From a virus: a DNA stretch of 35,804 bases. Of the stretch, positions 8,855 through 35,439 are shown in pieces (position 1 is the stretch's first letter; each line of letters starts with the position of its first letter). Where the stretch lies: positions 1 through 35,804 of IMG/VR virus record IMGVR_UViG_3300021963_008236; one strand, given 5' to 3'. The notes under the pieces are model-generated. The model was not told where the DNA came from, made no database searches, and saw nothing but the letters and a program-made list of their open reading frames with translations. The translations under genes and the position numbers were made by a program.

Positions 8855-8940
8855 ACTATCATAAGCAGCGGGGGTCCAAACTTCGTATAAGTCCTGCCCC
8901 TCCCATGCCTCTCAACGATGCACAAACAGGGAGGTCTCTT

Positions 8941-13908: not shown

Positions 13909-13969
13909 AAGATGAGGCAGCAATTTACTGCACTAAACCGTTAATTTAGAAAAGCAAAAAACTCATCTT
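13909..13969 (+). ncRNA. CAGCAATT stem-loop element E1
   Basis: AAGATGAG (13909) pairs with CTCATCTT (ends 13969); CAGCAATT at 13918-13925 follows the left arm and an A-run precedes the right arm. First of five related 51-61 nt elements around the Ro-like gene. Confidence 0.55.
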
Positions 13970-13979
13970 GCTCAAAAAA

Positions 13980-14034
13980 AAGTTGATTCAGCAATTAACC
14001 TAATTGTATCTGAAAAACAACTAAACATCAACTT
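13980..14034 (+). ncRNA. CAGCAATT stem-loop element E2 in the Ro-like gene leader
   Basis: AAGTTGAT pairs with ATCAACTT; CAGCAATT at 13989-13996. Its right arm ends at the base before GGAG, the Shine-Dalgarno of the gene at 14046. Confidence 0.55.
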
Positions 14035-14045
14035 GGAGAAAAATT

Positions 14046-15512
14046 ATGACTTTTATTACTGCTCTGGAATCTCAAATGAATGACACCGTGACTTTGAACG
14101 GTGCAAAATCAAACAAGTCCACTCTGAATAAGTGTCTGGATTTGTTTGGAAAAATTGGTGCTTGTCGTAATGATGTCAAGCAAGCACAACGACTGTTTGC
14201 CTTTGCATATGCCGAGAATCCTGAAACTGCGACTCGCATTCTGTTTTGGGTACGGGATATTCGTGGTGGTCAAGGAGAGCGTGAAGTTTTCCGCAATCTC
14301 TTCAAGTATCTCGTAGAGGAAAATGGTGAAATTGGTGCTAAACTAGTTTCTCTGGTTCCTGCATATGGACGCTGGGATGACCTACTTGTTCTAGAAAACA
14401 CTTCTGCCTGGGATAATGTTCTGGGTGCAATTCAGTTCCAACTGAATTTGGATCGTGTTTCTTTCAAGGCAGGTTCGGCAGTTTCTCTGCTTGCAAAGTG
14501 GTTGCCTTCTATCAATGCTTCCAGCAAAGATAGCAAGCGTCTGGGACGTAAGATTGCAGAACATCTTGGTATGACTGAGCGGGAGTATCGTAAGGTTCTC
14601 AGCAATCTTCGTACTCACATTAACGTTGTTGAAAAGGCAATGTGCTCTAAGGAATGGTCTGTAATTGACTATTCTAAACTGCCTTCTCGTGCTGCATTTA
14701 TGTATCGCAAGGCATTTGCAAAGCAAGATGCAACTCGGTATGCTGATTATCTCAGTGCCGTTGAGAAAGGTGAAGCAAAAATCAATGCCGCAACTCTGTA
14801 TCCTTATGAAATTGTCGAACAGTATCTCTACAAAGGTGCTCGCAACGACAAAACCATTGACCTACAGTGGGAAGCACTTCCTAACTATATGGAAGGTAAG
14901 GAGTTTAACGGTCTGGTAGTTGCTGACGTTTCAGGTTCTATGAATGGTCGTCCTATGTCGGTTTCTATCTCTCTTGCAATGTATATTGCAGAGCGTAATA
15001 CTGCTGAAGTGTGGAAGAATAAGTTCCTGACTTTCTCCGCACAACCTGAACTTCAATCTATCGTTGGTTCTACCATCGGTAAGCGTATTGATAATCTTTC
15101 TCGTGCTGCTTGGCAAATGAATACTGACCTGATGGCAGTATTCAAAACTGTTCTGGATGCAGGTATGAGTAATGACGTTGCTGTTGAGGATATGCCTCAG
15201 AAACTAATTATCGTCTCCGATATGCAGTTTGACCGGTGTTGCAGTTCTAACAAGAGAACTAACTTTGAGCAAATTCAAAAACTCTACCGTAAGGCAGGGT
15301 ATGAGATGCCGAGTTTAGTATTTTGGAACGTCAATTCAATTGGTGGTAATGTTCCTATCACTACTCACGATACTGGCACCTGTCTTGTATCTGGATGTAG
15401 TCCTTCTATCCTGAAGTCCATTCTGACGGATAAGGTTCTTACTCCTGTTGACACTATGAACGATACCGTGTATAGTGAGAGGTATGAAGCAATCGGTGAG
15501 GTGTTTGCCTGA
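14046..15512 (+). CDS. Ro-like RNA-binding protein (DUF2828, HEAT-like ring plus vWA)
   Basis: 488 residues with good Shine-Dalgarno GGAG at 14035. The N-terminal ~285 residues carry the DUF2828 signatures ILFWVRDIRGGQGEREVFRN, YGRWDDLL, SLLAKWLPS and YRKVLSNLR. The C-terminal third is a von Willebrand A domain with an intact MIDAS (VADVSGSM, Asp294-Ser296-Ser298), then LMAVFKTVL and IIVSDMQFD. HEAT-like repeats followed by a vWA domain is the architecture of the Ro60/TROVE ring protein, and phage members are often labelled Ro-like. Ro60 binds misfolded RNAs and Y RNAs. Here the gene lies among tRNAs and is flanked by repeated structured elements, supporting an RNA role. RNA binding itself is inference. 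Confidence 0.85.
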   Translation: MTFITALESQMNDTVTLNGAKSNKSTLNKCLDLFGKIGACRNDVKQAQRLFAFAYAENPETATRILFWVRDIRGGQGEREVFRNLFKYLVEENGEIGAKLVSLVPAYGRWDDLLVLENTSAWDNVLGAIQFQLNLDRVSFKAGSAVSLLAKWLPSINASSKDSKRLGRKIAEHLGMTEREYRKVLSNLRTHINVVEKAMCSKEWSVIDYSKLPSRAAFMYRKAFAKQDATRYADYLSAVEKGEAKINAATLYPYEIVEQYLYKGARNDKTIDLQWEALPNYMEGKEFNGLVVADVSGSMNGRPMSVSISLAMYIAERNTAEVWKNKFLTFSAQPELQSIVGSTIGKRIDNLSRAAWQMNTDLMAVFKTVLDAGMSNDVAVEDMPQKLIIVSDMQFDRCCSSNKRTNFEQIQKLYRKAGYEMPSLVFWNVNSIGGNVPITTHDTGTCLVSGCSPSILKSILTDKVLTPVDTMNDTVYSERYEAIGEVFA

Positions 15513-15529
15513 CCGAATCTTGAGGGGGG

Positions 15530-15558
15530 TTGACAAATCTTCCCCCTTCTGTTAAGAT
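15530..15558 (+). promoter_or_regulatory. Consensus-like sigma70 promoter for the E3/tRNA-like region
   Basis: TTGACA (15530-15535), 17 bases, TAAGAT (15553-15558). The predicted start near 15565 coincides with the first base of element E3 (15566). Confidence 0.82.
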
Positions 15559-15565
15559 AATTTCA

Positions 15566-15616
15566 TAGATGATTCAGCAATTAACTTCTTATTGCTAAAG
15601 GAAAAAACATCATCTA
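15566..15616 (+). ncRNA. CAGCAATT stem-loop element E3
   Basis: TAGATGAT/ATCATCTA stem, CAGCAATT at 15575-15582, A-rich before the right arm. It would be the very 5' end of its transcript and is followed 5 bases later by tRNA-like A. Confidence 0.65.
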
Positions 15617-15621
15617 GTTTC

Positions 15622-15739
15622 ACCAGAATAGTGTAACGGTAGCACACTTAAAAATCAGTTATCTAGTTTTAGATACGGACAGCAATTACTAATAATCCAT
15701 AGGGAGGAGGTGGTCTAGGTTCAATTCCTAGTTCTGGTA
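15622..15739 (+). ncRNA. tRNA-like RNA A with expanded anticodon arm
   Basis: 118 nt with perfect ACCAGAA/TTCTGGT acceptor, D arm GTGTAACGGTAGCAC and T arm CTAGG-TTCAATT-CCTAG. Instead of a 17-nt anticodon arm there is a ~65-nt domain with hairpin TATCTA/TAGATA, then GACAGCAATTACTAATAATCC (octamer at 15680-15687) and GGAGGAGG. No loop with T33 can be made, so it probably does not decode. A terminator follows. Confidence 0.65.
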
Positions 15740-15740
15740 T

Positions 15741-15762
15741 CAGACAGTTCTCTGTCTGTTTT
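15741..15762 (+). terminator. Terminator after tRNA-like A
   Basis: CAGACAG-TTCT-CTGTCTG, then TTTT. It would end a ~200-nt transcript starting at 15565. Confidence 0.8.
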
Positions 15763-15764
15763 AT

Positions 15765-15849
15765 GGGGAAGTTCTCGGGGGGACCTGAGGTTATCTTGTT
15801 TTAGATAAATCTGCATCTTACTTAATAAGTTCGACTCTTATCTTCCCCG
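15765..15849 (+). ncRNA. tRNA-like RNA C, class II shape with odd anticodon loop
   Basis: GGGGAAG/CTTCCCC acceptor, CTC/GAG D stem, T arm ATAAG-TTCGACT-CTTAT and a long variable region. The anticodon hairpin is TTATC/GATAA with eight bases (TTGTTTTA), or six if the closing T-A pair forms; no Leu or Ser anticodon fits. The hairpin resembles those in tRNA-like A and B. Confidence 0.55.
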
Positions 15850-15853
15850 CTTA

Positions 15854-15905
15854 TAGATAGTTCAGCAATTTAAAAATTTTCATACAGAGAAAAAACAACT
15901 ATCTA
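15854..15905 (+). ncRNA. CAGCAATT stem-loop element E4
   Basis: TAGATAGTT/AACTATCTA stem (9 bp), octamer at 15863-15870. It differs from E3 by paired changes in the stem, which supports a conserved helix. Followed 5 bases later by tRNA-like B. Confidence 0.65.
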
Positions 15906-15910
15906 GTTTT

Positions 15911-16029
15911 GCCGAAATAGTTTAATTGGGTAAAACGCTTAAAAACAGATATCTTGTAAAAGATACAGACAGCAATTACTAATAATCCATGTTAAGGAGG
16001 TGTTCTAGGTTCGAATCCTAGTTTCGGCG
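15911..16029 (+). ncRNA. tRNA-like RNA B with expanded anticodon arm
   Basis: 119 nt; perfect GCCGAAA/TTTCGGC acceptor, D arm GTTTAATTGGGTAAAAC, T arm CTAGG-TTCGAAT-CCTAG. The anticodon stem CTTAA/TTAAG encloses ~50 nt with hairpin TATCTT/AAGATA and CAGCAATTACTAATAATCC (octamer 15970-15977). The insert is nearly the same as in A although the tRNA bodies differ. Confidence 0.65.
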
Positions 16030-16030
16030 T

Positions 16031-16086
16031 TAGATGATTCAGCAATTAAAAAAACTTTTCTGTAAAAAAAGCCAAAAAATCATCTA
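16031..16086 (+). ncRNA. CAGCAATT stem-loop element E5
   Basis: TAGATGATT/AATCATCTA stem (9 bp), octamer at 16040-16047, starting two bases after the end of tRNA-like B. Confidence 0.6.
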
Positions 16087-16111
16087 GTTTAAAACTAAAT
16101 AATAAAATCAT

Positions 16112-16189: not shown

Positions 16190-16266
16190 GCTGTTGGTAG
16201 TCTAGTGGTCAGGACACCCCGATAAGGGAGTTGGAAAAGTAGGGGTTCGATTCCCCCACAACGGCA
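16190..16266 (+). tRNA. Degenerate or unusual tRNA, anticodon unclear
   Basis: GCTGTTG/CAACGGC acceptor and GTC/GAC D stem are clear, and a TTCGATT T loop is present. The anticodon region CCCCGATAAGGG gives no loop with T33 (nearest reading GAT), and the T stem has an extra base. Confidence 0.45.
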
Positions 16267-16348: not shown

Positions 16349-16419
16349 GCCCTATAAGCATTGTGGTGATGCAGCAGTTTTGTAAACTGCAGAGATTGGT
16401 TCAATTCCGATATGGGGCT
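16349..16419 (+). tRNA. tRNA-Thr(TGT), copy 2
   Basis: GCCCTAT/ATGGGGC acceptor, stem GCAGT/ACTGC, loop TTTGTAA. Its last base is the first base of the -35 box of the next promoter. Confidence 0.93.
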
Positions 16420-16447
16420 TGACATAATACTCGTTATGTCTTATAAT
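16419..16447 (+). promoter_or_regulatory. Consensus sigma70 promoter
   Basis: TTGACA, 17 bases, TATAAT (16442-16447). Hairpins TTCCTT/AAGGAA and GGGAGA-GAAA-TCTCCC follow before tRNA-Gly. Confidence 0.88.
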
Positions 16448-25130: not shown

Positions 25131-26681
25131 ATGAATGTCTTTATAATCAATCACTCCATAGAAAATTGTGGAGTCTATCAGTATGGAAAAAGATTTGGAA
25201 ATATCGCATCCAAATCTAAAAAATATAATTTCATGTATCATGAAATGAATTCTCAGGAAGAACTTAAAAGTTCTTATGAAGATCATAAACCCGAAGCAAT
25301 TATTTACAATTACCTGGGTGGAACAATGCCTTGGGTGACTCCGCAATTAGTTCAGAAGTATAGAGATCTTGGAGTTAAACAATATTTAATTGTTCATAAT
25401 GTAGGATATGCCACATTCTTTGATTATTATTTACACCAAGATCCTTATCATAAAAATGTTGACAGTAATAACTTTGCATTAGCAAGACCTTTATTTGATT
25501 ATCAATCACCTAAAATAGAAAGGAATGATGATACTTTACATGTAGGATCTTTTGGATTTGGATTTAGAATAAAATACTTTGATGAAATTTGTAGAATTGT
25601 AAATGAACAACTTTCTGATAAAAAAGTTCAAATCAATTTACATTTAACATCTTCTCATTTCTGTCCTGATGCAAATGACATTTCTGCTATCAAGCAAGAT
25701 TGTTTGAATTGTATCACTCATGATAATATTAAATTAAATATGACTCATGATTTTTTGACTGATAATGAAATGTTAGATTTTCTTGCTAAAAATGATTTAA
25801 ATATTTTCTTCTATGAAAAATACGAGAATTATTATAATGGCATTTCTTCTACAATAGATTATGCACTTTCTGTTAAAAAACCATTAGCAATTTGTGAAAG
25901 TAACATGTTCGCTCACATTTGGGATGTTCAACCTTCCATTTGTGTAGAAAATAATTCTTTGTCATCAATCATTGAAAATGGATTTTCTCCTCTAGAAGAA
26001 AAGTATAATTTATGGACAAATGAAAAGTTTATAGATATCTTAGATCAAATTATAGAAAAAACAACTGAAGTTATTATGCCCCAATTTAATTCTGATGCAA
26101 AGCAAGATCAATTTGCTGCAAATATTTTAAACTTTAAAAAAGATGGTTATTGCGTAGATATTGGGAGTTGTAACTCAATCACTTCAAATAATACTTATTA
26201 TTTTCAAAATGATAATTGGACATCAATTAGTGTAGAAATTGAAAGTTTATATAATGAAAGTTATTCCAGTAGAAAAAATGGAGTTCATCTAAATGAAAAT
26301 GCTTTGGAGGTTGACTATAAAAAACAATTTGAGGAATATGAATTTCCAAAAAGTATAGATTATCTTTCTCTAGATGTTGATACTCTAAGTTTGGATGTTC
26401 TTAAACTTTTACCTTTGGATGAGTATAGATTTAAAGTAATTACGATTGAGCATGACGGATACCTTTATGGTGATACGTATAGAGAACCTCAGAGGGGTAT
26501 TCTTAATTCTCATGGATATCTTCTAGTTTGTTCAAATGTTTATGTTGAACAACCTGGATATGAAGGAAAGGAATATCCATTTGAAGATTGGTGGATTGAC
26601 CCATCAGAATTTGATAATGATTTGATTGAAAGACTAAAATGTGATAGCACACTTCCATCGGTAATTATTTCTAAATTCTGA
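25131..26681 (+). CDS. Two-domain protein: GT-B-like domain fused to FkbM-like domain
   Basis: 516 residues. The first ~310 resemble a GT-B enzyme (IINHSIENCGVYQYGKRFGN, HNVGYATFF, HVGSFGFGFRIK, and SSTIDYALSVKKPLAICESN as the donor-side helix). The last ~190 look like an FkbM-type methyltransferase: a motif-I-like YCVDIGSCNSITSNNTYYF, then DYLSLDVDTLSLDVL and ITIEHDGYLYGD. Motif I lacks the usual GxxxG glycines, so SAM binding may be altered. A fused pair would add and methylate a sugar in one step. The fusion is inferred from one open frame. Confidence 0.65.
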   Translation: MNVFIINHSIENCGVYQYGKRFGNIASKSKKYNFMYHEMNSQEELKSSYEDHKPEAIIYNYLGGTMPWVTPQLVQKYRDLGVKQYLIVHNVGYATFFDYYLHQDPYHKNVDSNNFALARPLFDYQSPKIERNDDTLHVGSFGFGFRIKYFDEICRIVNEQLSDKKVQINLHLTSSHFCPDANDISAIKQDCLNCITHDNIKLNMTHDFLTDNEMLDFLAKNDLNIFFYEKYENYYNGISSTIDYALSVKKPLAICESNMFAHIWDVQPSICVENNSLSSIIENGFSPLEEKYNLWTNEKFIDILDQIIEKTTEVIMPQFNSDAKQDQFAANILNFKKDGYCVDIGSCNSITSNNTYYFQNDNWTSISVEIESLYNESYSSRKNGVHLNENALEVDYKKQFEEYEFPKSIDYLSLDVDTLSLDVLKLLPLDEYRFKVITIEHDGYLYGDTYREPQRGILNSHGYLLVCSNVYVEQPGYEGKEYPFEDWWIDPSEFDNDLIERLKCDSTLPSVIISKF

Positions 26682-26726
26682 TAATTTACCTAATATTATA
26701 AATCAAAAATAAACAAAAATTAAACT

Positions 26727-27452
26727 ATGAAAACAGAAATTACTCATTTAAATAAAAAAATAATTATAAACTTACATGAAAATGAAAATGAAACAGTATC
26801 ATCAACAATAAGTAGAACTGGTAACTTTTTTGAAATAAATTTTTTAGATTTTGTAAGAAATAATTTTAAAAAACAAAAAACAATTATTGATATTGGGGCA
26901 AACATTGGTAATCATTCTTTGTTTTTTTCGGAATTTTTAGAACATGATGAAATAATTTGTTTTGAACCTTTTGAAAAAAATGTTGAGTTACTTAAACTTA
27001 ATTTAATAGGTAAAAATTGTAAGATTATGGATTACGCACTTAGCGATTCTAATTCTGAAAAAATCTTATATAATAGTGAAGCAATTAATTTTGGTGGGTT
27101 TTCGTTACATTCATATGATGGAAGTAAGGGTGAAAATAAATCATTTATTGTTAAAGACAAAGTAGTTGCTAAAACTTTGGATAGTTTAAATCTAACTAAT
27201 ATTACCATGATTAAAATAGATGTTGAAGGTCATGAAAACTCAGTTTTAAGTGGAGGTATTGAGACAATAAAAAGAAATAATCCTATAATATTCATTGAGA
27301 ATTTAAGTCATGGTTACCCTCACTTATTTCACGATTCTCAATTTGATGAATTTTTTAAAGAAATAAATTATGTTAGAAAACATAAGGACATTATGAGTAG
27401 TTGTATGGATTTGTGGATTCCAAAATCGATGGAATTACCGAATGGAAAATAA
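26727..27452 (+). CDS. FkbM-family methyltransferase
   Basis: 241 residues with canonical FkbM motifs: TIIDIGANIGNHSLFFSEFL (SAM motif I), IICFEPFEKNVELLKLNL and MIKIDVEGHENSVLSGG. These enzymes O-methylate sugars or peptide hydroxyls; in this operon a glycan O-methylation is likely. TATAAATC (7 of 8 late bases) lies 21 bases upstream. The end overlaps the next gene by 11 bases. Confidence 0.9.
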   Translation: MKTEITHLNKKIIINLHENENETVSSTISRTGNFFEINFLDFVRNNFKKQKTIIDIGANIGNHSLFFSEFLEHDEIICFEPFEKNVELLKLNLIGKNCKIMDYALSDSNSEKILYNSEAINFGGFSLHSYDGSKGENKSFIVKDKVVAKTLDSLNLTNITMIKIDVEGHENSVLSGGIETIKRNNPIIFIENLSHGYPHLFHDSQFDEFFKEINYVRKHKDIMSSCMDLWIPKSMELPNGK

Positions 27453-33463: not shown

Positions 33464-34111
33464 ATGACTGCTACAATTGCTACACGTTCTAATACTATTA
33501 ACCCCTGGCAGAACTTCTGCGAGTGGGTTACTTCAACTGACAATCGTTTATATGTTGGTTGGTTCGGAGTCCTTATGATTCCTTGCCTACTTGTTGCTAC
33601 TTCAGTTTTTATTATTGCTTTTATTGCAAATCCGCCAGTAGATATTGACGGTATTAGGGAACCAGTAGCAGGTTCTCTAATGTATGGAAACAACATCATC
33701 TCTGGTGCAGTTGTTCCTTCTTCTAATGCTATTGGATTGCATCTTTATAATCTTTGGGATGCTGCTTCTATTGATGAAGCACTTTATAATGGTTGGGCAT
33801 ATCAAGCAGTGGTATTCCACTTTTTGATTGGTGTTTGGTGCTATCTTGGTCGTGAGTGGGAACTCTCATTCAGACTTGGAATGCGTCCTTGGATTGCAGT
33901 TGCTTATAGTGCTCCTGCTATTGCTGCGACTGCTGTATTCTTGATTTATCCCTTTGGTCAAGGAAGTTTTAGTGACGGAATGCCTCTTGGTATTTCTGGA
34001 ACCTTTAATTATATGCTTGTATTTTCTGCAGAACACAATATTCTTATGAATCCGTTTCATATGTTGGGTGTTGCAGGTGTTTTTGGTGGAAGTCTTTTTT
34101 CCGCAATGCAT
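33464..34111 (+). CDS. psbA: psbA exon 1 (photosystem II D1 protein, residues 1-216)
   Basis: [20 protein letters not shown] through [13 protein letters not shown]1 is the reaction-centre core protein of photosystem II and turns over fastest under light; phage copies keep photosynthesis going during infection. The frame is exactly 216 codons to the 5' splice site after CAT. Transmembrane helices A to D lie here; the QB and manganese ligands near the C-terminus are in exon 2. Joined to exon 2 it gives 360 residues, the normal D1 length. Confidence 0.96.
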
Positions 34112-34198
34112 AGGGAACTGTGCCCTTGCTGAGTAATCAGTAAGTGAAAATCGGGTGAACTGCTGGAACCCTAAGTTACTAAAATGTTACTTGACTTA

Positions 34199-34206
34199 TA
34201 TAAATA
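34199..34206 (+). promoter_or_regulatory. Late promoter TATAAATA inside the psbA intron
   Basis: Exact octamer 21 bases before the intron nuclease ATG at 34227; TTGACT at 34191 lies too close to be its -35. Confidence 0.75.
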
Positions 34207-34226
34207 ACTCTGGTAACATAAACAGT

Positions 34227-34904
34227 ATGACTAATCACTACTTATCTTTTATTGAGGAATGTAAATCTAAAACATATCCTCCCAATACTTATCTTGAAGA
34301 ACACCATATTGTCCCAAAACACGATGGTGGTTCAGATAATTCAGAAAATCTAATTTCATTATCTTTTGACGACCACATACTCGCACATAAAATAAGATAC
34401 GATGTATACGGTCAAGTTTATGACTTAGCAGCATATAACTTGATGTGTGGTTTTGATGGTGAAGGTTGGAGACTTCTTAGAGTTGAAGGTGCTTATAAAA
34501 CACACCAAGCACTGAGATTATCCAAGAAAAACTTTTGGAGTTCTGATTATCAAAAAGAAATGTCTGCTCGTTCTGTAAAGTCTGAGTATGCTATGAAAAT
34601 GAGAAGTGTTGGTGGTAAAATTGGTGGTAAGAATAGAAACAAAAATGTTGCTATTACTTCTACTGATAAGTATATTTTCTTTCACAATAAAGTAGAAACA
34701 GTTTGTATAATAAACTGCGAAACTGGTGGAGAAGTTTTAGAAGAACTACAAAAAATAGTTCCTAATCAAAACTTCAAGAGGGTAACACCTTTATTAAAAA
34801 AACAAAGAGAAAATGCATATGGTTGGTCTTGTGAAAAGTTTAGTAATACGGCAATCAGCATCCAAGTCTCAGATACATCTGAGAAAGGTTCAGAGACTAC
34901 CTGA
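34227..34904 (+). CDS. Intron-encoded HNH homing endonuclease
   Basis: 225 residues from the ATG at 34227; the upstream in-frame ATG at 34155 precedes the late promoter and looks unconserved. HNH core YLEEHHIVPKHDGGSDNSEN, then LISLSFDDHILAH. A basic segment (GGKIGGKNRNKN) near 150 and a C-terminal FKRVTPLLKKQRENAYGWSC tail probably bind DNA. It would cut intronless psbA to spread the intron. Related intron and nuclease pairs are known in cyanophage psbA genes (for example S-PM2). The separate late promoter lets it be made late, apart from early psbA mRNA. Confidence 0.88.
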   Translation: MTNHYLSFIEECKSKTYPPNTYLEEHHIVPKHDGGSDNSENLISLSFDDHILAHKIRYDVYGQVYDLAAYNLMCGFDGEGWRLLRVEGAYKTHQALRLSKKNFWSSDYQKEMSARSVKSEYAMKMRSVGGKIGGKNRNKNVAITSTDKYIFFHNKVETVCIINCETGGEVLEELQKIVPNQNFKRVTPLLKKQRENAYGWSCEKFSNTAISIQVSDTSEKGSETT

Positions 34905-35004
34905 GGGGTTTAGTCCCCTTAATAACAGGAATAAGTGCCCGACAACCTAATACAACTTAGGTTGATGATATAGTCCACTCCTTATGAAAATGAGGTATAA
35001 TAGG

Positions 35005-35439
35005 GGTTCCCTCGTAACCTCTTCAATCGTTCGTGAAACTACCGAAACTGAATCCCAAAATTATGGTTATAAGTTCGGTCAAGAAGAAGAAACGTATAAT
35101 ATCGTTGCTGCTCACGGTTATTTTGGTCGTCTTATTTTCCAATATGCTTCCTTTAATAACTCCCGCAGTCTCCACTTCTTCCTCGCTGCCTGGCCCGTTG
35201 TGGGTATCTGGTGTGCTGCTATGGGAATTGCCGTTTCTTCTTTCAATCTCAATGGTCTAAATTTTAATGAATCAATTCTAGATAACCAAGGACGAGCAAT
35301 TCCTACTTGGGCAGATATGCTTAATAGGGCAAATTTGGGTCTAGAAGTGGTCCACGAAAGGAACGCACATAACTTTCCTTTAGACCTTGCTAACGTAGAA
35401 GCAACTCCTGTTGCTCTTACTGCCCCAGTAATCGGTTGA
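35005..35439 (+). CDS. psbA: psbA exon 2 (D1 residues 217-360)
   Basis: [20 protein letters not shown] through [12 protein letters not shown]. Contains the DE loop, QB site ([14 protein letters not shown]), helix E and the lumenal C-terminus with [17 protein letters not shown], which holds manganese-cluster ligands and the CtpA processing region. Reading frame joins exon 1 precisely at GGT. A terminator follows. Confidence 0.95.

What the first reader, a model, noticed from the sequence alone, without database searches (positions are those of the whole stretch)
15530..15762. Promoter start site matches the first base of an element, giving a discrete ~200-nt RNA unit
A TTGACA-17-TAAGAT promoter just after the Ro-like gene predicts a start at 15564-15566, where element E3 begins. 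A clean terminator (15741-15762) follows tRNA-like A. The unit would be a 5' stem-loop E3 plus tRNA-like A, a defined noncoding RNA.
Basis: partly seen in the sequence, partly recalled or inferred. Interest (0 to 1): 0.7.

Follow-up and report, generated by a model that had tools for sequence, protein, structure and literature searches.

The report
Phage tRNA-mimic RNAs beside Ro-like gene
A bacterial virus carries, next to a gene for a Ro60-like ring protein, a cluster of small hairpin RNAs and tRNA look-alikes that share one conserved module; the same module turns up beside this gene in very different phages, pointing to a widespread, little-noticed family of Ro-partner (Y RNA-like) RNAs.

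Summary
The promoter (15530-15558) and hairpin E3 (15566-15616) are real. The promoter is unremarkable statistically, but it is conserved just upstream of the same hairpin in relatives, so a start at ~15565 is credible. The "clean terminator" (15741-15762) is doubtful: homologs of this spacer hairpin can lack a U-run, with the next tRNA-like gene following at once. The unit is probably part of a longer cluster reaching E5 (~16087).

What matters is larger. E3 and tRNA-like A belong to an RNA family defined by a stem P1 flanked by ACAGCAA and an A-rich strand. It occurs as stand-alone hairpins and as tRNA bodies whose anticodon loop is replaced by the module. P1 and the tRNA stems covary strongly. 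A model of circularly permuted cyanophage RNAs finds YrlA-type elements beside Ro-like genes in Enterococcus, Mycobacterium, Bacillus and E. coli phages (E down to 8e-14); six phages without the gene show none. The DUF2828 protein is predicted to have the Ro60/TROVE fold. Best reading: phage Y RNA-like partners of a Ro-like protein, some in a permuted, open-acceptor form, plus a leader hairpin at the gene's ribosome-binding site that may autoregulate it. Binding, start site and processing are inferred, not shown.

The parts
13909..13969 (+). E1: CAGCAA hairpin in the leader of the Ro-like gene
   Evidence: model R2 30.6 bits, E 0.00033
13980..14035 (+). E2: CAGCAA hairpin whose 3' arm abuts the Shine-Dalgarno GGAG of the Ro-like gene; candidate autoregulatory operator
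   Evidence: 54.7 bits with R2; same hairpin before nearly all cyanophage homologs with >50% identity
14046..15512 (+). Ro-like gene (488 aa, Pfam DUF2828 + DUF7788, PHROG 850 RNA-binding protein), predicted Ro60/TROVE fold with MIDAS motif DVSGSM
15522..15547 (+). Inverted repeat with the -35 box in its loop; stem changes but stays complementary in relatives
   Evidence: read from sequence, no formal covariation count
15530..15558 (+). Sigma70-type promoter TTGACA-17-TAAGAT; predicted start about 15565
15566..15616 (+). E3: stand-alone P1/CAGCAA hairpin
   Evidence: 63.2 bits with R2, E 1.5e-11 (the window copy was in the training set); covariation
15622..15739 (+). tRNA-like A: tRNA body with P1 hairpin (15660-15675) and CAGCAATT (15680-15687) in place of the anticodon loop
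   Evidence: 110.9 bits with R3 (training member)
15741..15762 (+). Terminator-like hairpin + TTTT; more likely a loop-deleted spacer hairpin
15766..15849 (+). tRNA-like C, with hairpin TTATCTTGTTTTAGATAA in the anticodon position but no CAGCAA
   Evidence: sequence; fold; 29.3 bits with R3, no better than ordinary tRNAs
15853..15906 (+). E4: stand-alone P1/CAGCAA hairpin
   Evidence: 65.3 bits with R2
15911..16029 (+). tRNA-like B: as A, P1 at 15950-15965, CAGCAATT at 15970-15977
   Evidence: Rfam tRNA 46.9 bits; 113.4 bits with R3
16030..16087 (+). E5: stand-alone P1/CAGCAA hairpin
   Evidence: 57.5 bits with R2

Best explanation
The stretch is the start of a cluster of small phage RNAs that are partners of the neighbouring Ro60-like protein. 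Each RNA carries one module: a purine/pyrimidine stem P1 whose end is flanked by the strands ACAGCAA(UU) and AAAAA(C). In E3, E4 and E5 the module is closed by a small variable cap. In tRNA-likes A and B it sits where the anticodon loop of a tRNA should be, so that the RNA is a tRNA mimic plus a protein-binding stem. This is the anatomy of YrlA-type bacterial Y RNAs, but with the circle cut elsewhere: acceptor ends open and P1 capped, instead of acceptor closed and P1 open. Most likely mechanism (inferred): transcription starts near 15565, runs through the cluster, and the tRNA-like pieces are cut out by tRNA-processing enzymes; the Ro-like ring binds P1 and the ACAGCAA module, with the tRNA-like body as tether or gate for structured RNA; spare protein binds leader hairpin E2 at its own ribosome-binding site and lowers its synthesis. 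Shown here: the module, its covariation, its linkage to the gene, the permuted homology, the predicted Ro fold. Inferred: binding, autoregulation, processing, start site.
For: Stem covariation: 53 stand-alone hairpins, P1 96% paired, 68 double changes, 0 of 500 shuffles as high; 45 tRNA-like RNAs, 17 of 22 pairs with compensatory changes in acceptor, D, T and P1 stems. Permuted homology: model R1, trained only on in-silico permuted cyanophage RNAs, hits Enterococcus phage EfV12 (8e-14, 1.8e-13), Mycobacterium phage Faith1 (3.5e-12, about 100 nt after the gene), Bacillus phages BcoS-136 and FADO, E. coli phage Alf5, Citrobacter Moogle and Stenotrophomonas DLP6. Rfam YrlA matches the EfV12 elements (E 1e-8 and 1.5e-5, below the gathering score). 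Linkage: ACAGC(A/G)A with a P1 of at least 7 pairs occurs 29 times on the gene's strand and 0 times on the other in 18 distant loci; shuffles average 0.5, scrambled cores 0.7. Open-acceptor form also in Vibrio and Aeromonas phages lacking the permuted form (53-81 bits). Six control phages without the gene reach only 40 bits (R3) and 32 bits (R1), the level of ordinary tRNAs. Protein: the top ten structural matches are all Ro60/TROVE, best Z 13.5 over 390 residues, including a Thermus phage Ro60. Leader hairpin at the start codon in nearly all cyanophage homologs.
Against: No binding or expression data. The Pfam TROVE profile does not match the protein even at E 10. The known YrlA model is not reached at its gathering score anywhere. 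Some phages carry the hairpins on contigs where no Ro-like gene was found (L033, L046, L053, L072, L097), though these are fragments. Staphylococcus phage PG-2021_12 and Pseudomonas phage Milchi have the gene and no clear element. The one Listeria RNA peak with published coordinates lies about 0.7 kb from the hairpins there.
Confidence: 0.68

Rival explanations
1. tRNA-likes A and B are ordinary tRNAs with tiny (about 42-50 nt) introns in the anticodon loop that are spliced out.
For: Acceptor, D and T arms are intact and covary; the insert sits at the anticodon-loop position, where known tRNA introns sit; Rfam scores both as tRNA.
Against: The same insert exists as stand-alone hairpins, and in distant phages the same strands occur in permuted order with the acceptor closed, which cannot be a tRNA precursor. 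No constant 7-nt loop with U33 is left in the copies compared (judged by eye). Too short for group I; no Rfam intron match in the window.
Confidence: 0.08
2. The stand-alone hairpins are processing signals or spacers between phage tRNA genes, recognised by a nuclease, with no link to the Ro-like protein.
For: They sit within a few nt of tRNA-like 3' and 5' ends; some tRNA arrays carry them without a detected Ro-like gene.
Against: They also flank the Ro-like gene itself, sit at its ribosome-binding site, and lie between protein genes in mycobacteriophage Faith1, which has no tRNA nearby; tRNA-rich phages without the gene lack the tRNA-like form.
Confidence: 0.12
3. Decoy tRNAs: RNAs that look like tRNAs but lack an anticodon loop, made to absorb host anticodon nucleases or other tRNA-directed defences.
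For: The cluster lies in a phage tRNA array, and the anticodon is the part that is replaced.
Against: Does not explain the stand-alone hairpins, the leader hairpin or the linkage to the Ro-like gene.
Confidence: 0.05
4. One reading: a discrete ~200-nt RNA, E3 plus A, started at 15565 and ended by the terminator at 15762.
For: Conserved promoter with correct spacing; hairpin followed by TTTT.
Against: The hairpin's homologs can lack a U-run and lead straight into the next tRNA-like RNA; only four T in the window, with tRNA-like C starting a few nt on.
Confidence: 0.2

Closest known systems
YrlA (Y RNA-like A, Rfam RF02553), bacterial Y RNAs that mimic tRNA
   Same: tRNA-like D and T arms and an anticodon-type stem leading to a terminal stem; found beside a Ro-fold gene; the EfV12 elements match the YrlA model at E 1e-8.
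   Different: In the window (and in Vibrio and Aeromonas phages) the circle is cut at P1 instead of the acceptor: acceptor ends open, P1 capped. Module sequence ACAGCAA/AAAAAC; below the Rfam gathering score; accompanied by stand-alone hairpins.
Ro60/Rsr (TROVE) proteins, including Thermus phage phiLo Ro60 (PDB 9l5y)
   Same: Predicted fold: repeat ring plus vWA domain with MIDAS; the ten best structural matches are Ro60/TROVE.
   Different: Different Pfam family (DUF2828 + DUF7788); no TROVE match by sequence; about 10-16% identity over the structural alignments.
Listeria phage CKA15 Rsr-like protein CKA15_055 and abundant ncRNAs (PMC12282133)
   Same: Same protein family; the authors propose Y RNA partners beside it.
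   Different: No RNA family was defined there; the one peak with coordinates (26,236-26,727) does not overlap the three ACAGCAA hairpins found here.

Membership tests
YrlA / bacterial Y RNA | tRNA-like domain with D and T arms | tested here: met
   Covarying acceptor, D and T stems
YrlA / bacterial Y RNA | Stem at the anticodon position leads into the terminal (Ro-binding) stem | tested here: met
   e.g. L009 6586-6697, CAACG/CGTTG stem leading to P1; not clear in window A and B, which have diverged there
YrlA / bacterial Y RNA | Acceptor closed; terminal stem made by the RNA's own 5' and 3' ends | tested here: not met
   Window A/B have open acceptor and capped P1; met in EfV12, Faith1, Alf5 and others
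YrlA / bacterial Y RNA | Rfam RF02553 gathering score of 69 bits | tested here: not met
   No hit in the window; 45.2 bits at best in EfV12
YrlA / bacterial Y RNA | Bound by a Ro60/Rsr protein | not testable with these tools
   Only gene neighbourhood and predicted fold
Ro60 / TROVE protein | Ro60 fold: helical-repeat ring plus vWA domain | tested here: met
   Z 13.5 over 390 residues, all of the top ten are Ro60/TROVE; Foldseek best hit Ro, E 5e-6; model pLDDT 80, pTM 0.67
Ro60 / TROVE protein | Pfam TROVE sequence profile | tested here: not met
   No TROVE match up to E 10; DUF2828 and DUF7788 instead
tRNA | 7-nt anticodon loop with an anticodon | tested here: not met
   ARAGORN does not call A or B; the anticodon position holds P1 + CAGCAA
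Intrinsic terminator at 15741-15762 | GC-rich hairpin followed by a U-run, kept in relatives | tested here: inconclusive
   Hairpin + TTTT present, U-run absent at homologous spacers in L014 and L022

The most novel reading that the evidence does not exclude
DUF2828 proteins of hundreds of phages form a separate branch of Ro RNPs with their own RNA ligands: a minimal hairpin (P1 + ACAGCAA/AAAAAC), used as stand-alone RNA, as leader operator for autoregulation, and built into tRNA mimics that exist in two circular permutations (acceptor closed or acceptor open).
Probability: 0.55. Interest if true: 0.82.

Novelty: new variant of a known kind. Interest (0 to 1): 0.72.

Why it matters
DUF2828 Ro-like genes are found in 667 of 50,697 phage records, mostly without a known role or ligand. 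A conserved RNA module beside them gives a defined ligand to test, links phage tRNA arrays to Ro biology, and explains some 'undetermined' or pseudo tRNAs annotated in phages. Two circular permutations of one tRNA-mimic RNA would be a rare natural case and tells which parts (P1 module and tRNA body, not the ends) matter.

Tried and rejected
Rfam scan of the window for a known family of the hairpins: none; the abiF RNA hit at 8899-8935 is a different motif. Exact 19-mer pattern search brought three coding false positives (L001, L002, L006). The unbiased hairpin pattern also hit coding chance matches (L042, L055, L060, L063, L064, L068, L069, L077, L078, L081, L092-L095, L101). PDB sequence search with the Ro-like protein: nothing. 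Rfam YrlA over whole phage records rings in almost all control genomes too, at low scores, so only the EfV12 hits were used. The permuted model R1 picks up pairs of adjacent tRNAs at up to about 36 bits (e.g. Campylobacter L119 3229-3359), taken as background; R1 hits in the window itself (44-55 bits) reuse training sequences and are not counted as evidence. Considered group I or archaeal-type introns for A/B: too short, and excluded by the permuted homologs. First thought the Listeria CKA15 RNA peaks were these hairpins; coordinates of the named peak do not overlap. Key reviews on bacterial Y RNAs were not held, so what is known of YrlA topology rests on memory and on the Rfam model.

Full report
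Setting. The window is a 35.8-kb virus fragment with 28 tRNA genes, psbA (with a PhotoRC-II motif) and sugar genes, most like Kyanoviridae cyanophages; the closest named genome with the same region is Synechococcus phage B23 (71% protein identity). Gene 14046-15512 is DUF2828 + DUF7788.

Check of the finding. The TTGACA-17-TAAGAT site is there, but promoter-like matches in this stretch are not above chance (8 against 10.1 expected). Its support comes from relatives: the same boxes lie just after the stop codon of the Ro-like gene, with the first hairpin starting 6-10 nt past the -10. The -35 box lies in the loop of an inverted repeat whose two arms change together (window GAGGGGG/CCCCCTTC, L073 and L030 GCAGAAGGGG/CCCCTTCTGC; read). 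In other relatives the hairpin follows the stop codon almost directly without a promoter, so RNA there must come from read-through and processing. The terminator-like hairpin 15741-15758 is followed by only four T. At the same place in L014 and L022 the short hairpin has no U-run and the next tRNA-like RNA begins at once; in L004 a full CAGCAA hairpin is there instead. I read it as a shortened spacer hairpin.

The RNA family. CAGCAATT occurs 7 times within 13.9-16.1 kb on one strand, 10 times in the window against 1.8 expected. Five copies are in stand-alone hairpins (E1-E5): P1 stem, CAGCAAUU, variable cap, A-rich strand, P1', G. Two are inside tRNA-likes A and B, where the order is A-rich strand, P1 as a capped hairpin, CAGCAAUU: the same internal loop seen from the other side. 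Collected from viral contigs, 53 diverse hairpins show 5 of 9 P1 pairs with double changes, 96% paired, covariation score 0.397 against 0.146 in shuffles and at most 0.081 with slid partners. 45 tRNA-like RNAs give a consensus of acceptor, D, T and P1 stems, 17 of 22 pairs with compensatory changes.

Relatives elsewhere. DUF2828 proteins occur in 667 phage records of many hosts. I read 18 distant loci (30-43% identity). A strict descriptor (P1 of 7 or more pairs, ACAGC(A/G)A within 3 nt, A-rich before P1') matched 29 times on the gene's strand and never on the opposite one; Markov shuffles gave 0.5 on average (maximum 2) and scrambled cores 0.7 on average, the maximum of 17 being AACAGCA, which overlaps the real motif. 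Three stand in a row directly upstream of the gene in Listeria phage AG20; hairpin, tRNA-mimic and hairpin directly follow the gene in mycobacteriophage Faith1.

Two permutations. In Enterococcus phage EfV12 the elements run P1 - ACAGC(A/G)A - anticodon-type stem - T arm - acceptor closed by a short loop - D arm - A-rich - P1', and match Rfam YrlA at E 1e-8 and 1.5e-5. Model R1, made from cyanophage RNAs permuted in silico to this order, finds EfV12 (8e-14, 1.8e-13), Faith1 (3.5e-12), BcoS-136 (1.6e-9), Alf5 (1.9e-9), FADO (5.6e-8), Citrobacter Moogle (1.8e-11) and Stenotrophomonas DLP6 (9.4e-9). Model R3, of the open-acceptor order, finds Vibrio nt-1 (6.4e-14), Vibrio D479, Aeromonas Ahp1 and LAh_9, with the core partly diverged there, for example ACGGCAA in nt-1. 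E-values are rough because calibration was short. Controls: six phages without the gene reach 40.3 bits with R3 and 32.4 with R1, on ordinary tRNAs; ordinary tRNAs of the window reach 36.6.

The protein. AlphaFold model pLDDT 80, pTM 0.67. Foldseek's best PDB hit is Ro autoantigen (5e-6); in the structural re-alignment the first ten entries are TROVE/Ro60 (Z 13.5 to 10.2), then unrelated vWA domains at Z 8.9 and below. Sequence profiles do not show TROVE.

Leader hairpin. E2 ends with AUCAACUU directly before GGAG of the ribosome-binding site. The same arrangement precedes nearly all cyanophage homologs above 50% identity, with the stem changed to AGUUAAU/AUUAACU in some. This suggests translational autoregulation; it is inference.

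Mechanism and status. Shown: a conserved, covarying RNA module in two settings and two permutations, tied to a gene with predicted Ro fold. Inferred: protein binding, tethering, autoregulation, processing of the cluster. The window RNAs are not filed as YrlA, because the closed-acceptor feature and the Rfam score fail; they work like a permuted YrlA. Stand-alone hairpins in tRNA arrays of contigs without a detected Ro-like gene leave room for a role in tRNA processing.

Noticed in passing
window 15522-15547: Inverted repeat enclosing the -35 box, both arms changing together in relatives: possible operator or end hairpin of the Ro-like mRNA.
   Followed up: partly
window 8899-8935: Rfam abiF RNA match (53.8 bits, gathering 37) just before the first tRNA of the array; abiF RNA is linked to an abortive-infection gene family.
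   Followed up: no
window 15766-15849 and 16190-16265: Two further tRNA-like sequences not called as ordinary tRNAs by ARAGORN; anticodon loops look like 6 or 8 nt.
   Followed up: no
L004 3388-3445, L022 8226-8282, L008 4344, L009 6508: A third form: P1 + CAGCAA hairpins whose cap is a T arm (e.g. TTGGTTCGATTCCAA), like a tRNA mimic reduced to its T arm.
   Followed up: partly
window 33464-35439: psbA appears interrupted: two psbA-like ORFs (33464-34132, 34984-35439) with an ORF between them at 34155-34904 whose sequence looks like an HNH-type endonuclease; suggests an intron with a homing endonuclease.
   Followed up: no
window 16419-16447 and 15448-15476: A perfect TTGACA-17-TATAAT promoter between tRNA genes and an 11/12 match inside the 3' end of the Ro-like gene.
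   Followed up: no
L116 7910-8025 (Aeromonas PX29), L135 7804-7917 (Aeromonas Ahp1), L007 5946-6055 (B23): Annotated joined tRNA-Leu, tRNA-Pseudo and tRNA-Undet; the first two are matched as open-acceptor tRNA mimics, the B23 one was not checked further.
   Followed up: partly
PMC12282133, Listeria phage CKA15: The DUF2828 protein CKA15_055 was detected in purified virus particles (20 peptides, 57% coverage), so it may be packaged.
   Followed up: no
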